Source: a virus
IMG/VR virus record: IMGVR_UViG_3300017745_000079
Span: 1-20,530 of that record
Length of the DNA stretch: 20,530 nt
Direction: 5' to 3' (one strand)
Below, piece by piece: positions 1,269 to 7,852 of this stretch. The position numbers and the translations under genes are program-made. The notes beneath the pieces were generated by a model. The model saw nothing but the letters and a program-made list of their open reading frames with translations, searched no databases and was not told the origin of the DNA. The stretch's first letter is position 1. Each line of letters starts with the position of its first letter.

Positions 1269-3194
1269 ATGAATAGTAACACACTTCCAACAGAATACCA
1301 AAACTACATTGCAATATCAAGATATGCAAGGTGGTTAGAAAAAGAAAATAGAAGAGAGACTTGGCAGGAAACTGTTGATAGATATGTTTCTTATATGGCT
1401 GATAGATATAAACAGATTACTAAAAAAGAAATATCTAAAGATGAATATGACAGATGGTTTAATGCTATACTTATGTTGGATGTGATGCCTTCAATGAGAG
1501 CACTCATGACTGCAGGACCTGCACTTGACAAAGATAATATTGCAGGATTTAATTGTTCATATGTAGCTATTGATAATGTAAGAACCTTTGATGAAATAAT
1601 GTATGTACTTATGTGTGGTACAGGTGTAGGGTTTAGTGTTGAGAGACAGTATACCAGTAAGCTACCTACTATTGAAGAAGAGTTTCATAAGACTGACACA
1701 GTTATTAAAGTAAAAGATAGTAAAATTGGTTGGGCAAAATCCTATAGAGAATTAATTGCCATGTTGTATGCAGGACAAATCCCTGAGTTTGATGTGTCAT
1801 TAGTTAGAAAAGCAGGAGAGAAACTAAAAACATTTGGAGGTAGAGCCAGTGGTCCTAAACCTTTGGTTGATTTATTTAATTTTACTATTGAAACTTTTAA
1901 GATAGCTAAAGGTAGAAAGCTAAACTCTCTTGAGTGTCATGACATTGTATGTAAGATAGCTGACGTTGTTGTCTGTGGTGGTGTAAGACGTTCAGCTTTA
2001 ATTAGTTTGTCTAATCTATCTGACCTACGTATGAGAGATGCTAAGACTGGACAATGGTGGGATGATAATCCACAAAGAAGTTATGCTAATAACTCTGTTG
2101 CCTATACTGAAATGCCTGACATAGGTACATTTATGAAAGAATGGGTATCATTATATGATTCAAAGTCTGGAGAACGTGGTATCTTTAATAGAGTTGCTTC
2201 ACAAAAAATGGCAACACGTTCAGGTAGAAGAGATGGAGACCATGAGTTTGGTACAAATCCCTGTTCAGAAATAGTGTTACGTAATAAACAAACGTGTAAC
2301 CTAAGTGAAGTTGTGGTTAGACCTTCAGATAAGATTGAAGATTTAAAAAAGAAAGTAGAGATAGCTACTATCTTTGGTACATTACAATCTACTCTTACTA
2401 ATTTTAGATATGTTACTAAGAAATGGAAAGAGAACACTGAAGAAGAAAGATTATTAGGTGTATCTCTTACTGGTATTATGGACCATAAGATATTATCAGG
2501 AGAAATTTTTAATAAACAAGTTCTTAAAGATATGTTAATAGAGTTAAAAGAACATGCTATTAAAGTAAATAAAGAGTGGGCAGATAAACTAGGTATCAAT
2601 CAATCTACTGCTATTACTTGTGTTAAACCTTCAGGAACTGTATCACAACTTGTTGATTCAGCTTCAGGTATACACCCTAGATATTCTTCTTACTATCTTA
2701 GAACTGTAAGAGCAGATAAGAAAGACCCTTTATGTGACATGATGTTAGAGAAAGGTTTCTATGGAGAGGATGACGTGATGAAACCTAATGATACTAAAGT
2801 ATTTTATTTTCCTATGAAAGCTCCACAGCATTCAGTTATGAGAGATAAGATGAGTGCATTAGAACAGCTTGAAGTATGGAAGATGTACCAACTATTTTGG
2901 TGTGAACATAAACCTTCTATTACTGTATATGTAAAAGAAAATGAATGGTTAAAGGTAGGTGCATGGGTGTATGAAAACTTTGAAATATGTAGTGGAGTTT
3001 CTTTCTTACCTCACTCTGAACACAGCTATCAACAAGCACCTTATCAAGAAGTAGATGAGAAGACTTACAAAGAGTGGTTAGCTAAGACACCTAAGAATAT
3101 TAACTGGATGGACTTAGTAAATCATGAAACTGAAGATACTACAACCTCTTCAAAAGAACTTGCATGTACTGCAGGTGCTTGTGAAATAGTTTAA
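1269..3194 (+). CDS. Class II (adenosylcobalamin-dependent) ribonucleoside-triphosphate reductase
   Basis: This 641-residue enzyme reduces ribonucleotides to deoxyribonucleotides for phage DNA synthesis. Catalytic landmarks are visible: C96 (FNCSYV) and C343 (QTCNL) as the redox pair; N330-P-C332-S-E334 carrying the expected thiyl-radical cysteine and the acid; and a C-terminal C633-x4-C638 shuttle close to the end (ACTAGACEIV). The C-x4-C tail, the FNCSYV/CGTGVGFSVE region and the absence of an R2 (radical-generating) subunit gene nearby fit the monomeric RTPR type known from Lactobacillus leichmannii, which is somewhat longer (about 740 residues). No N-terminal ATP cone is seen. An AAGGGG sequence about ten bases upstream supports ATG 1269. 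This class needs coenzyme B12 from the host. No small redox partner gene is visible in the window. The class II assignment is strong. Confidence 0.93.
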   Translation: MNSNTLPTEYQNYIAISRYARWLEKENRRETWQETVDRYVSYMADRYKQITKKEISKDEYDRWFNAILMLDVMPSMRALMTAGPALDKDNIAGFNCSYVAIDNVRTFDEIMYVLMCGTGVGFSVERQYTSKLPTIEEEFHKTDTVIKVKDSKIGWAKSYRELIAMLYAGQIPEFDVSLVRKAGEKLKTFGGRASGPKPLVDLFNFTIETFKIAKGRKLNSLECHDIVCKIADVVVCGGVRRSALISLSNLSDLRMRDAKTGQWWDDNPQRSYANNSVAYTEMPDIGTFMKEWVSLYDSKSGERGIFNRVASQKMATRSGRRDGDHEFGTNPCSEIVLRNKQTCNLSEVVVRPSDKIEDLKKKVEIATIFGTLQSTLTNFRYVTKKWKENTEEERLLGVSLTGIMDHKILSGEIFNKQVLKDMLIELKEHAIKVNKEWADKLGINQSTAITCVKPSGTVSQLVDSASGIHPRYSSYYLRTVRADKKDPLCDMMLEKGFYGEDDVMKPNDTKVFYFPMKAPQHSVMRDKMSALEQLEVWKMYQLFWCEHKPSITVYVKENEWLKVGAWVYENFEICSGVSFLPHSEHSYQQAPYQEVDEKTYKEWLAKTPKNINWMDLVNHETEDTTTSSKELACTAGACEIV

Positions 3195-3234: not shown

Positions 3235-4077
3235 ATGTTAATTAGAAGTAGACAAACAGCTAATGAGTATGAGTGGTTAAGACCTTTAGAATTAAATAAA
3301 ACTAACCTTTGTTTTATAGGTTATGACCATAGAGAAGACATTGCATATAGAGTTTGTGAACATTCTTTATTAAGAAAAAGTTCACGACCTCTAACTGTAG
3401 TTGACTTAAATCACAAATCATTAAGAGGTGCAGAATTATTTACAAGAGAATGGACTGAAGATTCAGAAGGACAAAGAATGGATGTTATAGATAACAAACC
3501 TTTCTCAACTGAGTTTAGTCATACTCGTTTCTTAGCACCTGAAGTTGCTAGAGTAAATGATATAACTAAAGGTTGGATATTATTTTGTGACTGTGACTTT
3601 TTATTTTTAGAAGATGTAGATAAGTTATTTAAATTTGTTGAAACTACATATCCTAATCATGCTGCTGCTTGTGTTAAGTTTGATTGGCAACCTAAAGAAT
3701 CTGAAAAAATGGATGGTCAAAAACAATTAGCATATGAAAAGAAACTATGGTCTTCTCTTATGTTAATTAATATGGGACATAAAGATACTAAAAAGTTAAC
3801 AACTGAATATGTTAACACAGCTAAAGGTTTAGACTTACATCAATTTAAATGGACAACTGATGACCAGATAGGAGCTATCCCTTCTTGTTGGAATTATATA
3901 CCAGATATAACTCCTATGTCTGAGTCACCTTCAGCTATACATTATTCATTAGGTGGTCCTTGGTTTGGTGGTAAGTTTGAGAACATGCAGTTCGCACAAG
4001 ACTGGCATGATGAAAGATTATTATATCAAACAACTATTCCTGGAAACATAGGAGATTGGGTAAGGTTAATGAAATGA
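3235..4077 (+). CDS. GT-A fold glycosyltransferase
   Basis: This 280-residue protein looks like a nucleotide-sugar-dependent glycosyltransferase of the GT-A fold. The FIGYDHRED start (about residues 27-35) fits the nucleotide-binding strand. WILFCDCDFLFLED contains the metal-binding DxD (D119, D121). WSSLMLIN (172-179), the W-T-T-D-D-Q-I-G segment (206-213) and IHYSLGGPWF (235-244), with its histidine, are typical acceptor-side and metal-ligand segments of the GT8-like group. Donor and acceptor are unknown; phage enzymes of this kind may decorate virion proteins, DNA or the host surface. It has its own promoter and strong Shine-Dalgarno sequence, and its TGA overlaps the start of the next glycosyltransferase (ATGA), so the two probably act together. 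Confidence 0.75.
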   Translation: MLIRSRQTANEYEWLRPLELNKTNLCFIGYDHREDIAYRVCEHSLLRKSSRPLTVVDLNHKSLRGAELFTREWTEDSEGQRMDVIDNKPFSTEFSHTRFLAPEVARVNDITKGWILFCDCDFLFLEDVDKLFKFVETTYPNHAAACVKFDWQPKESEKMDGQKQLAYEKKLWSSLMLINMGHKDTKKLTTEYVNTAKGLDLHQFKWTTDDQIGAIPSCWNYIPDITPMSESPSAIHYSLGGPWFGGKFENMQFAQDWHDERLLYQTTIPGNIGDWVRLMK

Positions 4078-6347
4078 GTAAAGACGATATAAATATTGTA
4101 ACTTCTTTTAGTAAGAAAGGTTGGTCAACATATGGTAAACTTATGGTTGATTCTTGTGTTAAATATTTATCAGATGACTTACATCTTACAGTTTTTTATC
4201 ACGACTTTGATGAAGAAACAATTAAAGAGTTTCCTAAAACTGATAAGATAACTTTTGAAAATTTAAATAGATGTACTGATATGATTCAGTATAGACAAGA
4301 GATGGTAAGGCATGATGGCACACAAGGTGGCAAGATGCCCTACAACTGGAGATTAGATGCCATTAAATGGTGTCACAAAGTGTATGCCTTAACTGACTTC
4401 TCCTTCAGGTTAGTTAAAGAAGGTGTGCAAGTGGGTTGGGTAGTATGGTTAGATGCTGACGTTATCCTGAAGAAACCTTTATCTAAGAAGGATTTGTTTA
4501 GAATTATTCCCCTTGGTTCTGAGCTTGTCCATCTTGGTAGGAAAGATGTTGATTATAGTGAGACATCCTTCATGGCTTTTAATTTAAATACTACCCCACC
4601 TTTTGATTTACTAGCAGATATGAGGGGAATATATAATAGTCATGAGGTTCTAGCTTATAGAGAGTGGCATGATGGTTTTATATTTGAAAGATTATTTAAT
4701 ATCTATGGAGCACATGGGTTAAAGAAGCATAGCTTAACACCAAAAGTAAATGGGTTAGATGCTTTTAATAACTCTCCTCTTACAGAATACTTGGAACATT
4801 ATAAAGGTAATAGAAAACAGGAGTTATCAAATGAAACTACCCCTGACGTTACTGGTCCAAAGCGATATAAACAAATTGCTACAATTATCAGACACTATAA
4901 GTTTTCAAGATTTCTTGAAACAGGTACATGGAATGGTGGTCGTGCAATTGAAATGGCATTGGCAGCTTTTGACAATGTAGATAAAGTACATTACAAAGGT
5001 TATGATTTATTTGAAGATGCAGATGAGTTAACTGACAAGACTGAAATGAATACCAAGCCACATAATCTTTACAAAGCAGTAGAGAAAAGACTAAATGATT
5101 TTAAAGAACATGTTAAGAAAAACTTTAAAAAAGAATTTACTTTTGAATTAGTTAAAGGTAATACCAAAGAAACTTTAACTGAACAAAAAGATTTTGACTT
5201 AGCTTATTTGGATGGTGGTCATAGTGAAGATACAGTACAACATGATTATAATATGACTAAGACATTTCCTGTTGTAATCTTTGATGACTTCTTTACTAAA
5301 GATATAGATGGAAAAGAAGTTGTTGAAGAACATCAAGGAACTAATAAAGTATTTAATGCTTTAGATAATAAGCTAAGAAAAAAAGTCTTACCTTCTCAAG
5401 ACCCTGTTATGGGTGGAGGTGTTACTCATCTAGGTGTTGTTATACATGATGACAAACTAGATGAACTACCATCAAGTTTAAAAGAAATACCTATTGTAGT
5501 TAAACCTAAAGACTGTATGCCAGTAGATGACATTAGAAAAAACATTAAAGAAAATGTTAAGGTTATGAACTCATGGTTAGAAAGATGTAGACCTAATGGA
5601 GAGACATTGAATATTGTTTCAGGTGGACCTTCTTTCTTAAAGCATATAGACTATTTAAAAGAAACTAAAGATAAAATAATATGTGTTAAACATTCCCTTC
5701 CTATGTTATTAGAACATGGAATTACACCTTGGGGTTGTAACATACTTGACCCTAGACCTATTGAAGGAACAAGTACACATGGTATTGTACGTAAAGATTT
5801 ATTTAAAGTTGTACCAAAAGAAACTAATTTCTTTGTATCATCTATGACAGATATATCTGTACTACAATTATTAAAAAAATCTAATGCAACTATAGTAGGT
5901 TGGAATGCTTACTCAGATGCTATTGTTGAAAAAGAAAAAGATGGTAAGGTTGTTATCCCTGAAGAACTAGGTATACCACAGAATGCTACACTACTTACAG
6001 GTGGCACATGTGCAGCTATGAGAGCCATTAGTGTAGGACATACATTAGGTTTTAGAAACTTTAATCTATTTGGATTTGATTGCTCAGTGCCTGAACCAAA
6101 AGACAAGACTGAAGTAGATAGCACAGGTAAACAAAAGTATCTGCATGTAGTTACTAATGGTAAAAAGTTTTGGACTACTGGTGAACTATTGGCTATGGCA
6201 CAAGACGTAGAAAAATTATTACAAAGAACAGATGTAGATATGTACATGGAATTTTATGGAGAAGATACATTAGTTTCTGAGTTATGGAAATTACAACAAC
6301 CACAAAGGCTACCTGATTATGGCACTACACTCAGCAGTAATACTTAA
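4074..6347 (+). CDS. Three-domain fusion: glycosyltransferase, SAM methyltransferase, Maf/DUF115-like domain
   Basis: The start is ATG 4074, overlapping the previous stop as ATGA and preceded by TAAGG at good spacing; a TTG start at 4056 is also in frame but less likely. The 757-residue product has three parts. Residues 1 to about 240 resemble a GT-A glycosyltransferase with the DxD at WLDADVIL (D127, D129). Residues about 255-460 resemble a class I SAM-dependent methyltransferase: FLETGTWNGG (280-289) binds SAM, and YLDGGH (378-383) and FDDFF (403-407) are the acidic loops of the Methyltransf_24 type. Residues about 485-757 resemble the MptE/Maf (DUF115) fold: VSGGPSF (515-521), GGTCAAMRAI (643-652) and LFGFDCS (665-671). 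Maf proteins transfer nonulosonic acids. The substrate is unknown. The first third is clearly less AT-rich than the rest. Confidence 0.75.
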   Translation: MSKDDINIVTSFSKKGWSTYGKLMVDSCVKYLSDDLHLTVFYHDFDEETIKEFPKTDKITFENLNRCTDMIQYRQEMVRHDGTQGGKMPYNWRLDAIKWCHKVYALTDFSFRLVKEGVQVGWVVWLDADVILKKPLSKKDLFRIIPLGSELVHLGRKDVDYSETSFMAFNLNTTPPFDLLADMRGIYNSHEVLAYREWHDGFIFERLFNIYGAHGLKKHSLTPKVNGLDAFNNSPLTEYLEHYKGNRKQELSNETTPDVTGPKRYKQIATIIRHYKFSRFLETGTWNGGRAIEMALAAFDNVDKVHYKGYDLFEDADELTDKTEMNTKPHNLYKAVEKRLNDFKEHVKKNFKKEFTFELVKGNTKETLTEQKDFDLAYLDGGHSEDTVQHDYNMTKTFPVVIFDDFFTKDIDGKEVVEEHQGTNKVFNALDNKLRKKVLPSQDPVMGGGVTHLGVVIHDDKLDELPSSLKEIPIVVKPKDCMPVDDIRKNIKENVKVMNSWLERCRPNGETLNIVSGGPSFLKHIDYLKETKDKIICVKHSLPMLLEHGITPWGCNILDPRPIEGTSTHGIVRKDLFKVVPKETNFFVSSMTDISVLQLLKKSNATIVGWNAYSDAIVEKEKDGKVVIPEELGIPQNATLLTGGTCAAMRAISVGHTLGFRNFNLFGFDCSVPEPKDKTEVDSTGKQKYLHVVTNGKKFWTTGELLAMAQDVEKLLQRTDVDMYMEFYGEDTLVSELWKLQQPQRLPDYGTTLSSNT

Positions 6348-6934: not shown

Positions 6935-7306
6935 ATGTTTTTAAATTTACTAGCACCTATACTAGGCAAGGTTCTTGATAGAGTAATACCTGACAAAGCT
7001 GGACAACAAAAGGCTATGCAGGAATTAAACAAGGCACTTGTGACACACTCAGCAGATATTGAAAAAGCTGCTGCTTCTGTTGTCGTTGCTGAAGCTAAAG
7101 GTGAGGGTTGGTTACAACGTAATTGGAGACCTTTAACAATGCTATCTTTTTTAGGATTGCTATTCTTATATTGGTTTGGGGTTCACCCTGAAAACTTATC
7201 TGACCAAGTGGTAATGAAACTGTTTGATTTACTACAGATTGGTATAGGTGGTTACATTATAAGTAGAGGTGCTGAGAAAGGTATTAAAACTTGGAAGGAA
7301 AAATAA
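6935..7306 (+). CDS. Holin of the three-TM (GTA-holin-like) type
   Basis: This 123-residue membrane protein resembles the GTA_holin_3TM group. A short hydrophobic N-terminal helix (MFLNLLAPILGKVLDRV) is followed by a charged helical region. Then comes the signature AEAKGEGWLQRNWRPLTML (residues 52-70), a membrane segment (about 67-83), a short external loop, and a final hydrophobic segment LFDLLQIGIGGYIISRGAEK (96-115). Holins form lesions in the inner membrane that time lysis and release the endolysin; no endolysin is recognisable here, so it is presumably encoded outside the window. AAGGAG eight bases upstream supports the start. It may have its own promoter and it runs directly into the pqqA-like peptide gene, one base after its stop, so both are probably expressed together late in infection. 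Confidence 0.85.
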   Translation: MFLNLLAPILGKVLDRVIPDKAGQQKAMQELNKALVTHSADIEKAAASVVVAEAKGEGWLQRNWRPLTMLSFLGLLFLYWFGVHPENLSDQVVMKLFDLLQIGIGGYIISRGAEKGIKTWKEK

Positions 7307-7307
7307 T

Positions 7308-7388
7308 ATGAGTACATGGAAACAACCAACTATTACAGAAATCTCTGTAGGTTTAGAAATTAATTCTTATGCTTGTGCTGAAAAGTAA
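7308..7388 (+). CDS. pqqA: PqqA-like PQQ precursor peptide (26 aa)
   Basis: This tiny gene begins one base after the holin stop, with AAGGAA about eight bases before its ATG, and ends just before the terminator. The 26-residue peptide contains WKQPTITEISVGLEINSY (residues 4-21), which fits PqqA precursors: an N-terminal W-x-x-P, a V-G-[LM]-E core and the essential Glu (E17) and Tyr (Y21) separated by three residues. In the known pathway the radical-SAM enzyme PqqE, with chaperone PqqD, joins these two side chains; later enzymes release and oxidise the product to pyrroloquinoline quinone, the cofactor of periplasmic methanol, glucose and related dehydrogenases. Length is in the usual range (about 23-30). 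No pqqB-E genes are present in the window, so the host must supply them. A different crosslinked peptide product is possible. Confidence 0.85.
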   Translation: MSTWKQPTITEISVGLEINSYACAEK

Positions 7389-7405
7389 ATAGTATAAAAC
7401 AAATT

Positions 7406-7448
7406 AAAAAAAATACCCCTAGTTAACTTAATAGCTAGGGGTTTTTTT
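7406..7448. terminator. Bidirectional intrinsic terminator between convergent operons
   Basis: ACCCCTAG (7415-7422) pairs with CTAGGGGT (7435-7442) around a 12-base loop. A T-run at 7442-7448 serves the plus-strand operon ending in pqqA, and an A-run at 7406-7413 gives the U-tract for the minus-strand operon ending in iscU. Confidence 0.9.
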
Positions 7449-7471
7449 ATGTATGCCTATATCACAGTTGG

Positions 7472-7852
7472 CTACTTATTCTTATCCTTATAATCTTTTA
7501 CTGCAGCTTTGATTGCATCTTCAGCAAGAACAGAACAATGAATCTTAACTGGAGGTAAGGCTAGATGCTTTGCTATCTCAGTGTTCTTTATCTTATTAGC
7601 TTCATCTATGTTCTTTCCCTTAACCCACTCAGTTATTAGTGAGCTTGAAGCTATCGCTGACCCACATCCAAATGTTTTAAACTTAGCATCTTGAATAACA
7701 CCTTCATCACCTACCTTAATTTGTAGTTTCATTACATCACCACAGGCAGGAGCACCTACTAATCCAGTGCCTACCTCTGCAGAATCTTTATCCATTGAGC
7801 CTACATTTCTAGGTTTTTCGTAATGGTCTAATAGTTCTTTACTATATGTCAT
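7472..7852 (-). CDS. iscU: Fe-S cluster scaffold protein IscU
   Basis: The start is placed at ATG 7852, overlapping the iscA-like stop as ATGA; the frame extends nine codons further but the family begins with M-x-Y-S. The 126-residue protein agrees with Escherichia coli IscU along its whole length. The cluster ligands are all present: C37 and D39 (APACGD), C63 (GCGSAIASSS), H105 and C106 (KIHCS). The L99-P-P-V-K motif recognised by the HscA chaperone is also intact. IscU receives sulfur from IscS and assembles [2Fe-2S] clusters for transfer. An intact protein with every partner-binding residue suggests it works in the host Isc machinery. By hand count parts of the gene are about 42-50% GC, above most neighbours, consistent with fairly recent capture from a bacterium. 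It is the last gene of the virion operon. Confidence 0.96.
   Translation of the reverse strand: MTYSKELLDHYEKPRNVGSMDKDSAEVGTGLVGAPACGDVMKLQIKVGDEGVIQDAKFKTFGCGSAIASSSLITEWVKGKNIDEANKIKNTEIAKHLALPPVKIHCSVLAEDAIKAAVKDYKDKNK

What the first reader, a model, noticed from the sequence alone, without database searches (positions are those of the whole stretch)
7308..7388. Phage-encoded PqqA-like precursor peptide hidden between holin and terminator
A 26-codon gene with a good ribosome binding site encodes a peptide carrying WKQPTITEISVGLEINSY. Seen in the sequence: the W-x-x-P start, the V-G-L-E core, and Glu17 and Tyr21 separated by three residues. Established: in PqqA these two residues are joined by PqqE to build PQQ. 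Inference: the phage adds precursor supply to a host PQQ pathway late in infection, keeping PQQ-dependent dehydrogenases (for example a XoxF-type methanol dehydrogenase) active. It has no pqqB-E genes beside it, so it would be precursor-only cargo. Genes this short are usually missed by annotation.
Basis: partly seen in the sequence, partly recalled or inferred. Interest (0 to 1): 0.92.

Follow-up and report, generated by a model that had tools for sequence, protein, structure and literature searches.

The report
Phage gene for PQQ precursor peptide
A marine bacterial virus carries a tiny gene for the peptide from which bacteria build the cofactor PQQ, and many other marine viruses do the same, so they may be feeding their hosts' methanol-burning machinery during infection.

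Summary
The 26-codon ORF at 7308-7388 encodes a true PqqA: PF08042 30.6 bits (cut-off 21.1), TIGR02107 36 bits (cut-off 20), with Glu17/Tyr21. It lies one base after a holin gene and before an intrinsic terminator. Of 25 viral records whose holin is 87-100% identical, 24 have it; one 56.7-kb record has a clean empty site. The last 16 residues do not vary while the 3' flank is scrambled (pN/pS 0.26, wide interval). PqqE and PF13360 domains are absent from 50 of 50 pqqA-bearing viral records tested.

The phage's iscU points to a HIMB59-family alphaproteobacterium (93% identity to MED657). That genome has one pqqABCDE operon beside a xoxF cluster plus three orphan pqqA genes. Best reading: the phage adds substrate for host PqqD/E, raising PQQ for XoxF during infection. 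Identity is shown; the physiological effect and host are inferred. Viral PqqA is already in print for a Lake Baikal phage (PMC7678222). New here: the precursor-only setting, recurrence in marine phages and host context.

The parts
7308..7388 (+). pqqA: 26-aa PQQ precursor peptide MSTWKQPTITEISVGLEINSYACAEK (Glu17, Tyr21)
   Evidence: PF08042 30.6 bits, TIGR02107 36 bits; present in 24 of 25 close relatives
7293..7299 (+). putative ribosome binding site GGAAGGA, 8 nt before the ATG, inside the holin 3' end
   Evidence: sequence; stretch largely kept in the relatives aligned
6935..7306 (+). upstream holin gene (3TM GTA-type); its stop codon ends one base before the pqqA ATG
   Evidence: PF11351 36.2 bits; phrog_3427 87.4 bits
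7409..7448 (+). intrinsic-terminator-like hairpin with T run after pqqA
   Evidence: -19.5 kcal/mol, z -5.1, 0 of 200 shuffles as good
7472..7852 (-). iscU (Fe-S scaffold), convergent with pqqA, 83 bases away; used here to place the host
   Evidence: TIGR01999 227.7 bits vs 192.4; 93% identity to G009, a HIMB59-family genome
7849..8172 (-). hesB/erpA-like A-type Fe-S carrier overlapping iscU by four bases
   Evidence: TIGR00049 104.9 bits vs 58.8; best of 26 genomes is G009 at only 50%

Best explanation
The gene is a functional phage-borne pqqA. Shown here: the peptide is a PqqA with the Glu/Tyr pair; it is conserved at the protein level at one site in a phage clade, sits in a holin-pqqA-terminator unit, and comes without any other PQQ gene that I could find. 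Inferred: the phage infects a HIMB59-family methanol-oxidising alphaproteobacterium. When the holin region is transcribed the peptide is translated, bound by host PqqD and cross-linked at Glu17-Tyr21 by host PqqE. It is then finished by host PqqB/PqqC and protease, giving more PQQ for the host's XoxF methanol dehydrogenase and so more electrons and energy while the cell makes phage. Because one PqqA molecule is consumed for each PQQ, adding precursor copies is a cheap way to raise flux. Host-type genomes use the same device: one operon copy and up to three orphan copies for a single PqqE.
For: Profile scores. Present in 24 of 25 close relatives fetched by the holin; the one without it is a clean empty site. 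pN/pS 0.26 (bootstrap 0.06-0.87): the last 16 codons have no amino-acid change and five synonymous columns. Glu and Tyr stand in all 79 PqqA copies that reach the Tyr among loci fetched by a neighbouring gene, not by pqqA (46 + 10 + 23). 120 of 120 pattern-matched viral stretches are PqqA-type ORFs. PqqE and PF13360 absent in 50 of 50 pqqA-bearing records, PqqE absent from the window. Phage IscU is 93% identical to G009 and groups with G009, G002/G019 and G010; G009 is in the HIMB59 family. In that family 31 of 32 genomes have pqqA, 1-4 copies. Of the first 19 genomes (13 in that family), 14 have a PqqE over the cut-off, one each, and 10 of these 14 have two or more pqqA. G009 has pqqB, C, D, E over cut-off and a XoxF cluster beside them. 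The window peptide's last 16 residues are identical to the main HIMB59-family PqqA. Papers (passages read): Glu and Tyr of PqqA make PQQ, PqqA is 20-fold more expressed than PqqC or PqqE, and loss of the gene in M. extorquens leaves 10-20% of PQQ (PMC2294125); cross-link by PqqE with PqqD (PMC10906245); multiple pqqA copies are known (PMC6520949).
Against: No expression, cross-linking or PQQ measurement. pN/pS rests on 11 distinct sequences and its upper bound is 0.87. Host assignment rests mainly on one gene: genomes outside the HIMB59 family reach 86% in IscU, 7 of the first 19 genomes gave no IscU match, the erpA-like gene is only 50% identical to its best match, and in the tree (20 of 33 inner branches unresolved, bootstrap not settled) the IscUs of other members of the same phage clade do not join the window's group. 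Five of those 19 genomes lack an above-cut-off PqqE (four no match, one partial); incompleteness cannot be told from absence. XoxF was checked in one genome only. The gene is dispensable: absent in L006 and in 28 of 72 c9 loci that have 300 bp of room downstream, and not seen in 55 distant holin relatives. Late timing is deduced only from the neighbouring holin.
Confidence: 0.7

Rival explanations
1. Neutral passenger: a host orphan pqqA was picked up by recombination and drifts in phages without benefit.
For: The gene is short and dispensable (L006 empty site; 28 of 72 c9 loci with room lack it), and hosts carry orphan copies that are easy to capture. The pN/pS interval reaches 0.87.
Against: Last 16 codons with synonymous change only, scrambled flank; presence in several different gene contexts, and at different positions within the largest group.
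Confidence: 0.11
2. Decoy: the phage peptide occupies PqqD/PqqE and lowers host PQQ, shutting down methanol oxidation to redirect metabolism.
For: Phages do make small inhibitors of host enzymes (general knowledge, recalled); only the binding part would need to be kept.
Against: The two chemically used residues Glu and Tyr are kept in 79 of 79 copies, and the last 16 residues equal those of the main HIMB59-family PqqA, which suits a substrate better than an inhibitor.
Confidence: 0.07
3. The peptide acts with the holin in lysis, its PqqA look being incidental.
For: It is the next gene after a holin in the window clade and in the c30 group (phrog_3427), and after a similar-sized gene of unknown function (c9, phrog_2524) in another.
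Against: PqqA profile E of 3.4e-7 and 4.4e-9; no long hydrophobic run by eye; in other stretches the gene sits between terminase and portal (L089, L116, L159, L161, L181) or directly before iscU.
Confidence: 0.02
4. A combined PQQ module: iscU and the erpA-like gene were recruited with pqqA to keep the Fe-S enzyme PqqE loaded. (This adds to the best explanation and does not exclude it.)
For: pqqA lies 83 bases from iscU in the window and directly upstream of iscU on the same strand in 8 of 120 other stretches; six of these eight form their own IscU clade, the other two are unresolved. PqqE holds three Fe-S clusters (PMC5715301, passages).
Against: Only 12 of 120 pqqA stretches hold iscU (stretches are often short), and of 80 viral IscU loci only one has pqqA; sharing a host could explain the pairing.
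Confidence: 0.15

Closest known systems
PqqA in Lake Baikal virus population VP_266 (PMC7678222; passages read)
   Same: A phage genome encodes the PQQ precursor PqqA, proposed to support methanol oxidation in a methylotroph host.
   Different: VP_266 also encodes a methanol dehydrogenase and is a lake virus. Here the viral records carry pqqA without PqqE or a PF13360 domain (50 of 50), and the peptide is identical in its last 16 residues to the PqqA of HIMB59-family alphaproteobacteria. The VP_266 peptide itself was not seen.
Virus-encoded pqqA, pqqE, pqqD in reservoir sediments (PMC13188868; passages read)
   Same: pqqA listed among viral auxiliary metabolic genes.
   Different: Framed as phosphate solubilisation; the passages seen give no gene-level analysis of pqqA.
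Orphan pqqA copies of HIMB59-family genomes and multiple pqqA of methylotrophs (PMC6520949 passages)
   Same: Stand-alone precursor genes away from the single PqqE; same last 16 residues.
   Different: Chromosomal, not phage-borne.
HTVC023P/HTVC027P pelagiphages and phage DSL-LC04
   Same: Related 611-aa virion protein, 33-38% identity over 91-99% of the query.
   Different: A word search of the paper on 80 uncultivated pelagiphage genomes gave no occurrence of PQQ, PqqA, IscU or NifU (PMC9599517); the INPHARED records gave no PqqA match.

Membership tests
PqqA (PF08042 / TIGR02107) | profile score above curated cut-off | tested here: met
   30.6 vs 21.1 bits; 36 vs 20 bits
PqqA (PF08042 / TIGR02107) | Glu-x-x-x-Tyr pair that becomes PQQ | tested here: met
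   Glu17/Tyr21; kept in 79 of 79 copies that reach the Tyr
PqqA (PF08042 / TIGR02107) | short free-standing peptide gene with its own start and ribosome site | tested here: met
   26 codons, GGAAGGA 8 nt before ATG; region kept in relatives aligned
PqqA (PF08042 / TIGR02107) | cross-linked by PqqE with PqqD | not testable with these tools
   needs an in vitro assay
pqqABCDE operon | pqqB-E genes beside pqqA | tested here: not met
   PqqE absent from the window and from 50 of 50 viral records; Pfam scans of 22 window proteins show no PQQ-synthesis family besides PqqA. PqqB, C and D were not searched in the other records.
Viral auxiliary metabolic gene | host-type metabolic gene embedded among phage genes | tested here: met
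   holin upstream, phage endonuclease I, virion protein and RNR in the same 20.5 kb; same place in 24 of 25 relatives
Viral auxiliary metabolic gene | alters host metabolism in infection | not testable with these tools
   no expression or metabolite data
XoxF lanthanide methanol dehydrogenase in host group | close sequence match to solved XoxF and location by pqq genes | tested here: met
   one genome, G009: 6oc5 XoxF E 3.4e-264, D-Y-D-G aligned with D-F-D-G; TIGR03075 667 vs 480 bits, same 9.5 kb as pqqBCDE
Host = HIMB59 family | shared gene closer to this family than to others | tested here: inconclusive
   IscU 93% to G009 vs at most 86% outside the family in a sample of 385 class genomes plus the 19, tree support 84/91 in a poorly resolved tree; erpA-like gene only 50%; no CRISPR or single-cell link

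The most novel reading that the evidence does not exclude
Marine phages of several types have repeatedly adopted a substrate-only auxiliary gene: instead of an enzyme they carry the precursor peptide of a redox cofactor, exploiting PqqA supply as the rate-limiting step in methanol-oxidising alphaproteobacteria whose own genomes are already stocked with orphan pqqA copies. If so, viral PQQ boosting is a common and overlooked control on methanol and alcohol oxidation in the surface ocean, hidden because genes this short escape annotation.
Probability: 0.5. Interest if true: 0.75.

Novelty: new variant of a known kind. Interest (0 to 1): 0.62.

Why it matters
Auxiliary metabolic genes are usually enzymes; here the phage would supply the raw material of a cofactor, one molecule per PQQ. 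It ties phage infection to XoxF, a lanthanide enzyme of methanol oxidation, and it offers a test of whether PqqA supply limits PQQ in streamlined bacteria. It also suggests that phage metabolic genes below about 30 codons are easily missed: no PHROG matches the peptide.

Tried and rejected
Chance ORF: rejected by profile scores and conservation. The erpA-like gene as host marker: weak, best 50%. Reference phages: no tblastn hit at E <= 10 to two PqqA peptides in 50,697 INPHARED records; such short queries find near-identical copies only.

Errors of my own script: my Glu/Tyr expression mis-anchored on upstream codons for 17 window-clade loci, so I read that clade from the printed peptides (23 complete, all with E and Y; L010 is cut before the Tyr). 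Two of the 10 c30 copies also fell outside the expression but read E and Y as printed.

Limits on counts: one search kept the best 80 of 97 relatives; searches stopped at 120 stretches; one search stopped at 600 stretches with 80 kept; one search kept 80 of 133; one search kept 80 of 597. The 120 viral stretches were picked by a pattern that fixes most of the core, so their pN/pS (0.20) is biased and not used. The ten context groups come from a simple single-linkage rule (two shared gene clusters within 2.5 kb): three are single stretches, and shared iscU/hesB can pull different phage types together, so the number is rough. Phage-type labels such as T4-like are recalled. Two of the 120 genome stretches (L208, L255) are phage contigs sitting in MAGs; they stayed in the 64-peptide host set behind the home-made profile. 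PF13360 is not specific to dehydrogenases: in the HIMB59 family 27 of 32 genomes match, mostly with proteins of about 430 aa that are probably BamB (recalled), and 11 with an open frame of 614-673 aa, of which only G009's was checked.

Literature: ten searches of the PMC library. The two that required PqqA with phage or viral terms returned only PMC7678222 and PMC13188868; the looser ones showed capped lists. PMC12124388 (PQQ import) and PMC9602057 (vinegar virome), which name PQQ with phage or virus terms, were seen as listings only. Subscription papers and preprints are not held.

I lowered the main confidence from 0.72 to 0.70 after adding the tree result that other clade members' IscU does not join the window's group.

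Full report
What is there. The ORF at 7308-7388 (+) reads MSTWKQPTITEISVGLEINSYACAEK. It begins one base after the stop of a holin gene (6935-7306; PF11351 and phrog_3427), with GGAAGGA 8 nt before the ATG. It is followed by a strong terminator-like hairpin with a T run (7409-7448, -19.5 kcal/mol, z -5.1). PF08042 scores 30.6 bits against a cut-off of 21.1 and TIGR02107 36 against 20. Pfam scans of 22 window proteins found no other PQQ-synthesis family, and PqqE is absent.

Is it maintained? I fetched 80 viral relatives of the holin (best of 97), so the choice does not depend on pqqA. Of the 25 with 87-100% identity, 24 records have PqqA (23 over the cut-off, one cut by the contig end). The exception, L006, is a 56.7-kb record with the holin end and a matching terminator but no gene between them: a natural empty site. 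In the 55 more distant relatives none was seen (loose pattern). Among 11 distinct sequences pN is 0.053 and pS 0.205, ratio 0.26 with a wide bootstrap of 0.06-0.87. The last 16 codons have no amino-acid change and five columns with synonymous change, whereas the DNA after the stop differs widely between the subgroups aligned (11 sequences).

How widespread is it? All 120 are short PqqA-type ORFs, 60 with EINSY and 60 with EINCY. By shared gene clusters within 2.5 kb they fall into groups of 60, 26, 14, 5, 5, 4, 3, 1, 1 and 1, a rough count. Representative neighbours match a portal (phrog_1216), terminase (phrog_38), GroES (phrog_3188), holin (phrog_3427), late-transcription, helicase-loader and exonuclease families (phrog_254, 269, 298), and IscU. 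In the largest group the gene sits at different places: between terminase and portal (L089, L116, L159, L161, L181), downstream of the portal, or after the gene c9. Two further fetches by neighbour genes, c9 (phrog_2524, unknown function) and c30 (holin), gave PqqA in 46 of 80 and 10 of 80 loci. With the window clade, Glu and Tyr stand in all 79 copies that reach the Tyr. In 28 of 72 c9 loci with room downstream no PqqA was found. PqqE at E 1e-5 and PF13360 at E 1e-3 are absent from 50 of 50 pqqA-bearing viral records, many of which are fragments. INPHARED has no close PqqA.

Whose phage? A PqqA pattern in genome contigs gave 120 stretches before its limit, mostly alphaproteobacterial by title, many of them marine single-cell genomes. 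Two are phage contigs binned in MAGs. The window's iscU, 83 bases beyond pqqA and convergent with it, encodes a protein 93% identical to that of G009 ('Rickettsiales bacterium MED657'), which lies in the family of HIMB59-MED-G10. In 385 genomes drawn from the class, the five best scores are HIMB59-family members (85-87%); others reach 86%. A tree puts the window IscU with G009, G002/G019 and G010 (84/91), but 20 of 33 inner branches are unresolved and the IscUs of other members of the same phage clade fall elsewhere. The erpA-like neighbour has G009 as its best of 26, at 50% only. I take a HIMB59-family host as likely, not proven. In INPHARED the 611-aa virion protein is 33-38% identical to those of DSL-LC04, HTVC027P and HTVC023P.

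What the host group does with it. In the HIMB59 family 31 of 32 genomes carry pqqA, up to four copies. Of the first 19 genomes examined (13 in that family), 14 have an above-cut-off PqqE, one each; 10 of those 14 have two or more pqqA; five lack an above-cut-off PqqE. In the loci read, one pqqA opens the operon before pqqB (L278, L274, L232) and others lie elsewhere with no PqqE in the stretch (L273, L234, L215, L248, L299, L321, L265, L271, L305, L230; their neighbours were not annotated). In G009 pqqB, C, D and E all pass their cut-offs, and beside them lie a MoxJ-type protein (TIGR03871, over cut-off), a methanol-related cytochrome c (TIGR03874, below cut-off) and a 610-aa dehydrogenase (TIGR03075 667 vs 480 bits). 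The last matches solved XoxF 6oc5 at E 3.4e-264, its D-Y-D-G aligned with D-F-D-G. The names XoxG/XoxJ and the reading of that stretch as the lanthanide motif are recalled.

Mechanism. From papers whose passages I read: PqqE with PqqD cross-links Glu and Tyr of PqqA (PMC10906245); replacing either residue stops PQQ in one species, PqqA is expressed about 20-fold above PqqC or PqqE, and loss of the gene in M. extorquens leaves 10-20% (PMC2294125); several pqqA copies occur in methylotrophs (PMC6520949). PqqA is therefore a consumed substrate, and an extra copy is a plausible way to raise flux. The window peptide's last 16 residues equal those of the main HIMB59-family PqqA. Shown: identity, conservation, no PqqE found, a likely host group with full pathway and XoxF in one genome. 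Inferred: translation late in infection, cross-linking, higher PQQ, higher methanol oxidation.

Known or new. The Lake Baikal virus VP_266 encodes both PqqA and a methanol dehydrogenase (PMC7678222), and viral pqqA is listed from reservoir sediments (PMC13188868). So phage pqqA as such is known. What I did not find in ten literature searches (some with capped lists) is its precursor-only, recurrent presence in marine phages, a link to HIMB59-type hosts, or the parallel with orphan host copies. A HIMB59 genome paper has no occurrence of PQQ, XoxF or methanol (word search, PMC10734472).

Verdict. A new variant of a known kind.

Noticed in passing
L006 6369-6430 against window 7304-7450: Natural empty site: a 56.7-kb relative has the holin stop and a matching terminator with pqqA cleanly missing.
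   Followed up: yes
L084, L108, L132, L135, L137, L150, L199, L200: pqqA 9-71 bases upstream of iscU on the same strand in other phage contigs; six of the eight have IscUs in their own clade.
   Followed up: partly
L273, L234, L215, L248, L299, L321: Orphan pqqA genes in HIMB59-family genomes away from the pqqBCDE operon; why one PqqE is served by up to four precursor genes is unexplained.
   Followed up: partly
L208 and L255: Contigs in MAGs titled Maricaulis IN14 and Flavobacteriaceae SAT25 are phage contigs with pqqA: binning contamination.
   Followed up: yes
L089, L116, L159, L161, L181: pqqA lies between terminase and portal genes, while others of the same context group have it after the portal.
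   Followed up: no
window 4056-6347 (+): 763-aa protein with Methyltransf_24 and MptE-like domains next to a glycosyltransferase-8-like gene (3235-4077, just below cut-off), possibly surface-sugar modification.
   Followed up: no
window 1269-3194 (+): B12-dependent ribonucleotide reductase, about 61% identical to those of HMO-2011 and Roseobacter and Rhizobium phages.
   Followed up: no
60 of 120 viral stretches, e.g. L094: A second PqqA type (EINCY in place of EINSY) is common in the portal/GroES neighbourhoods; among genome stretches this type is in 28 ORFs, several in Rhodospirillales-titled MAGs, suggesting other hosts.
   Followed up: partly
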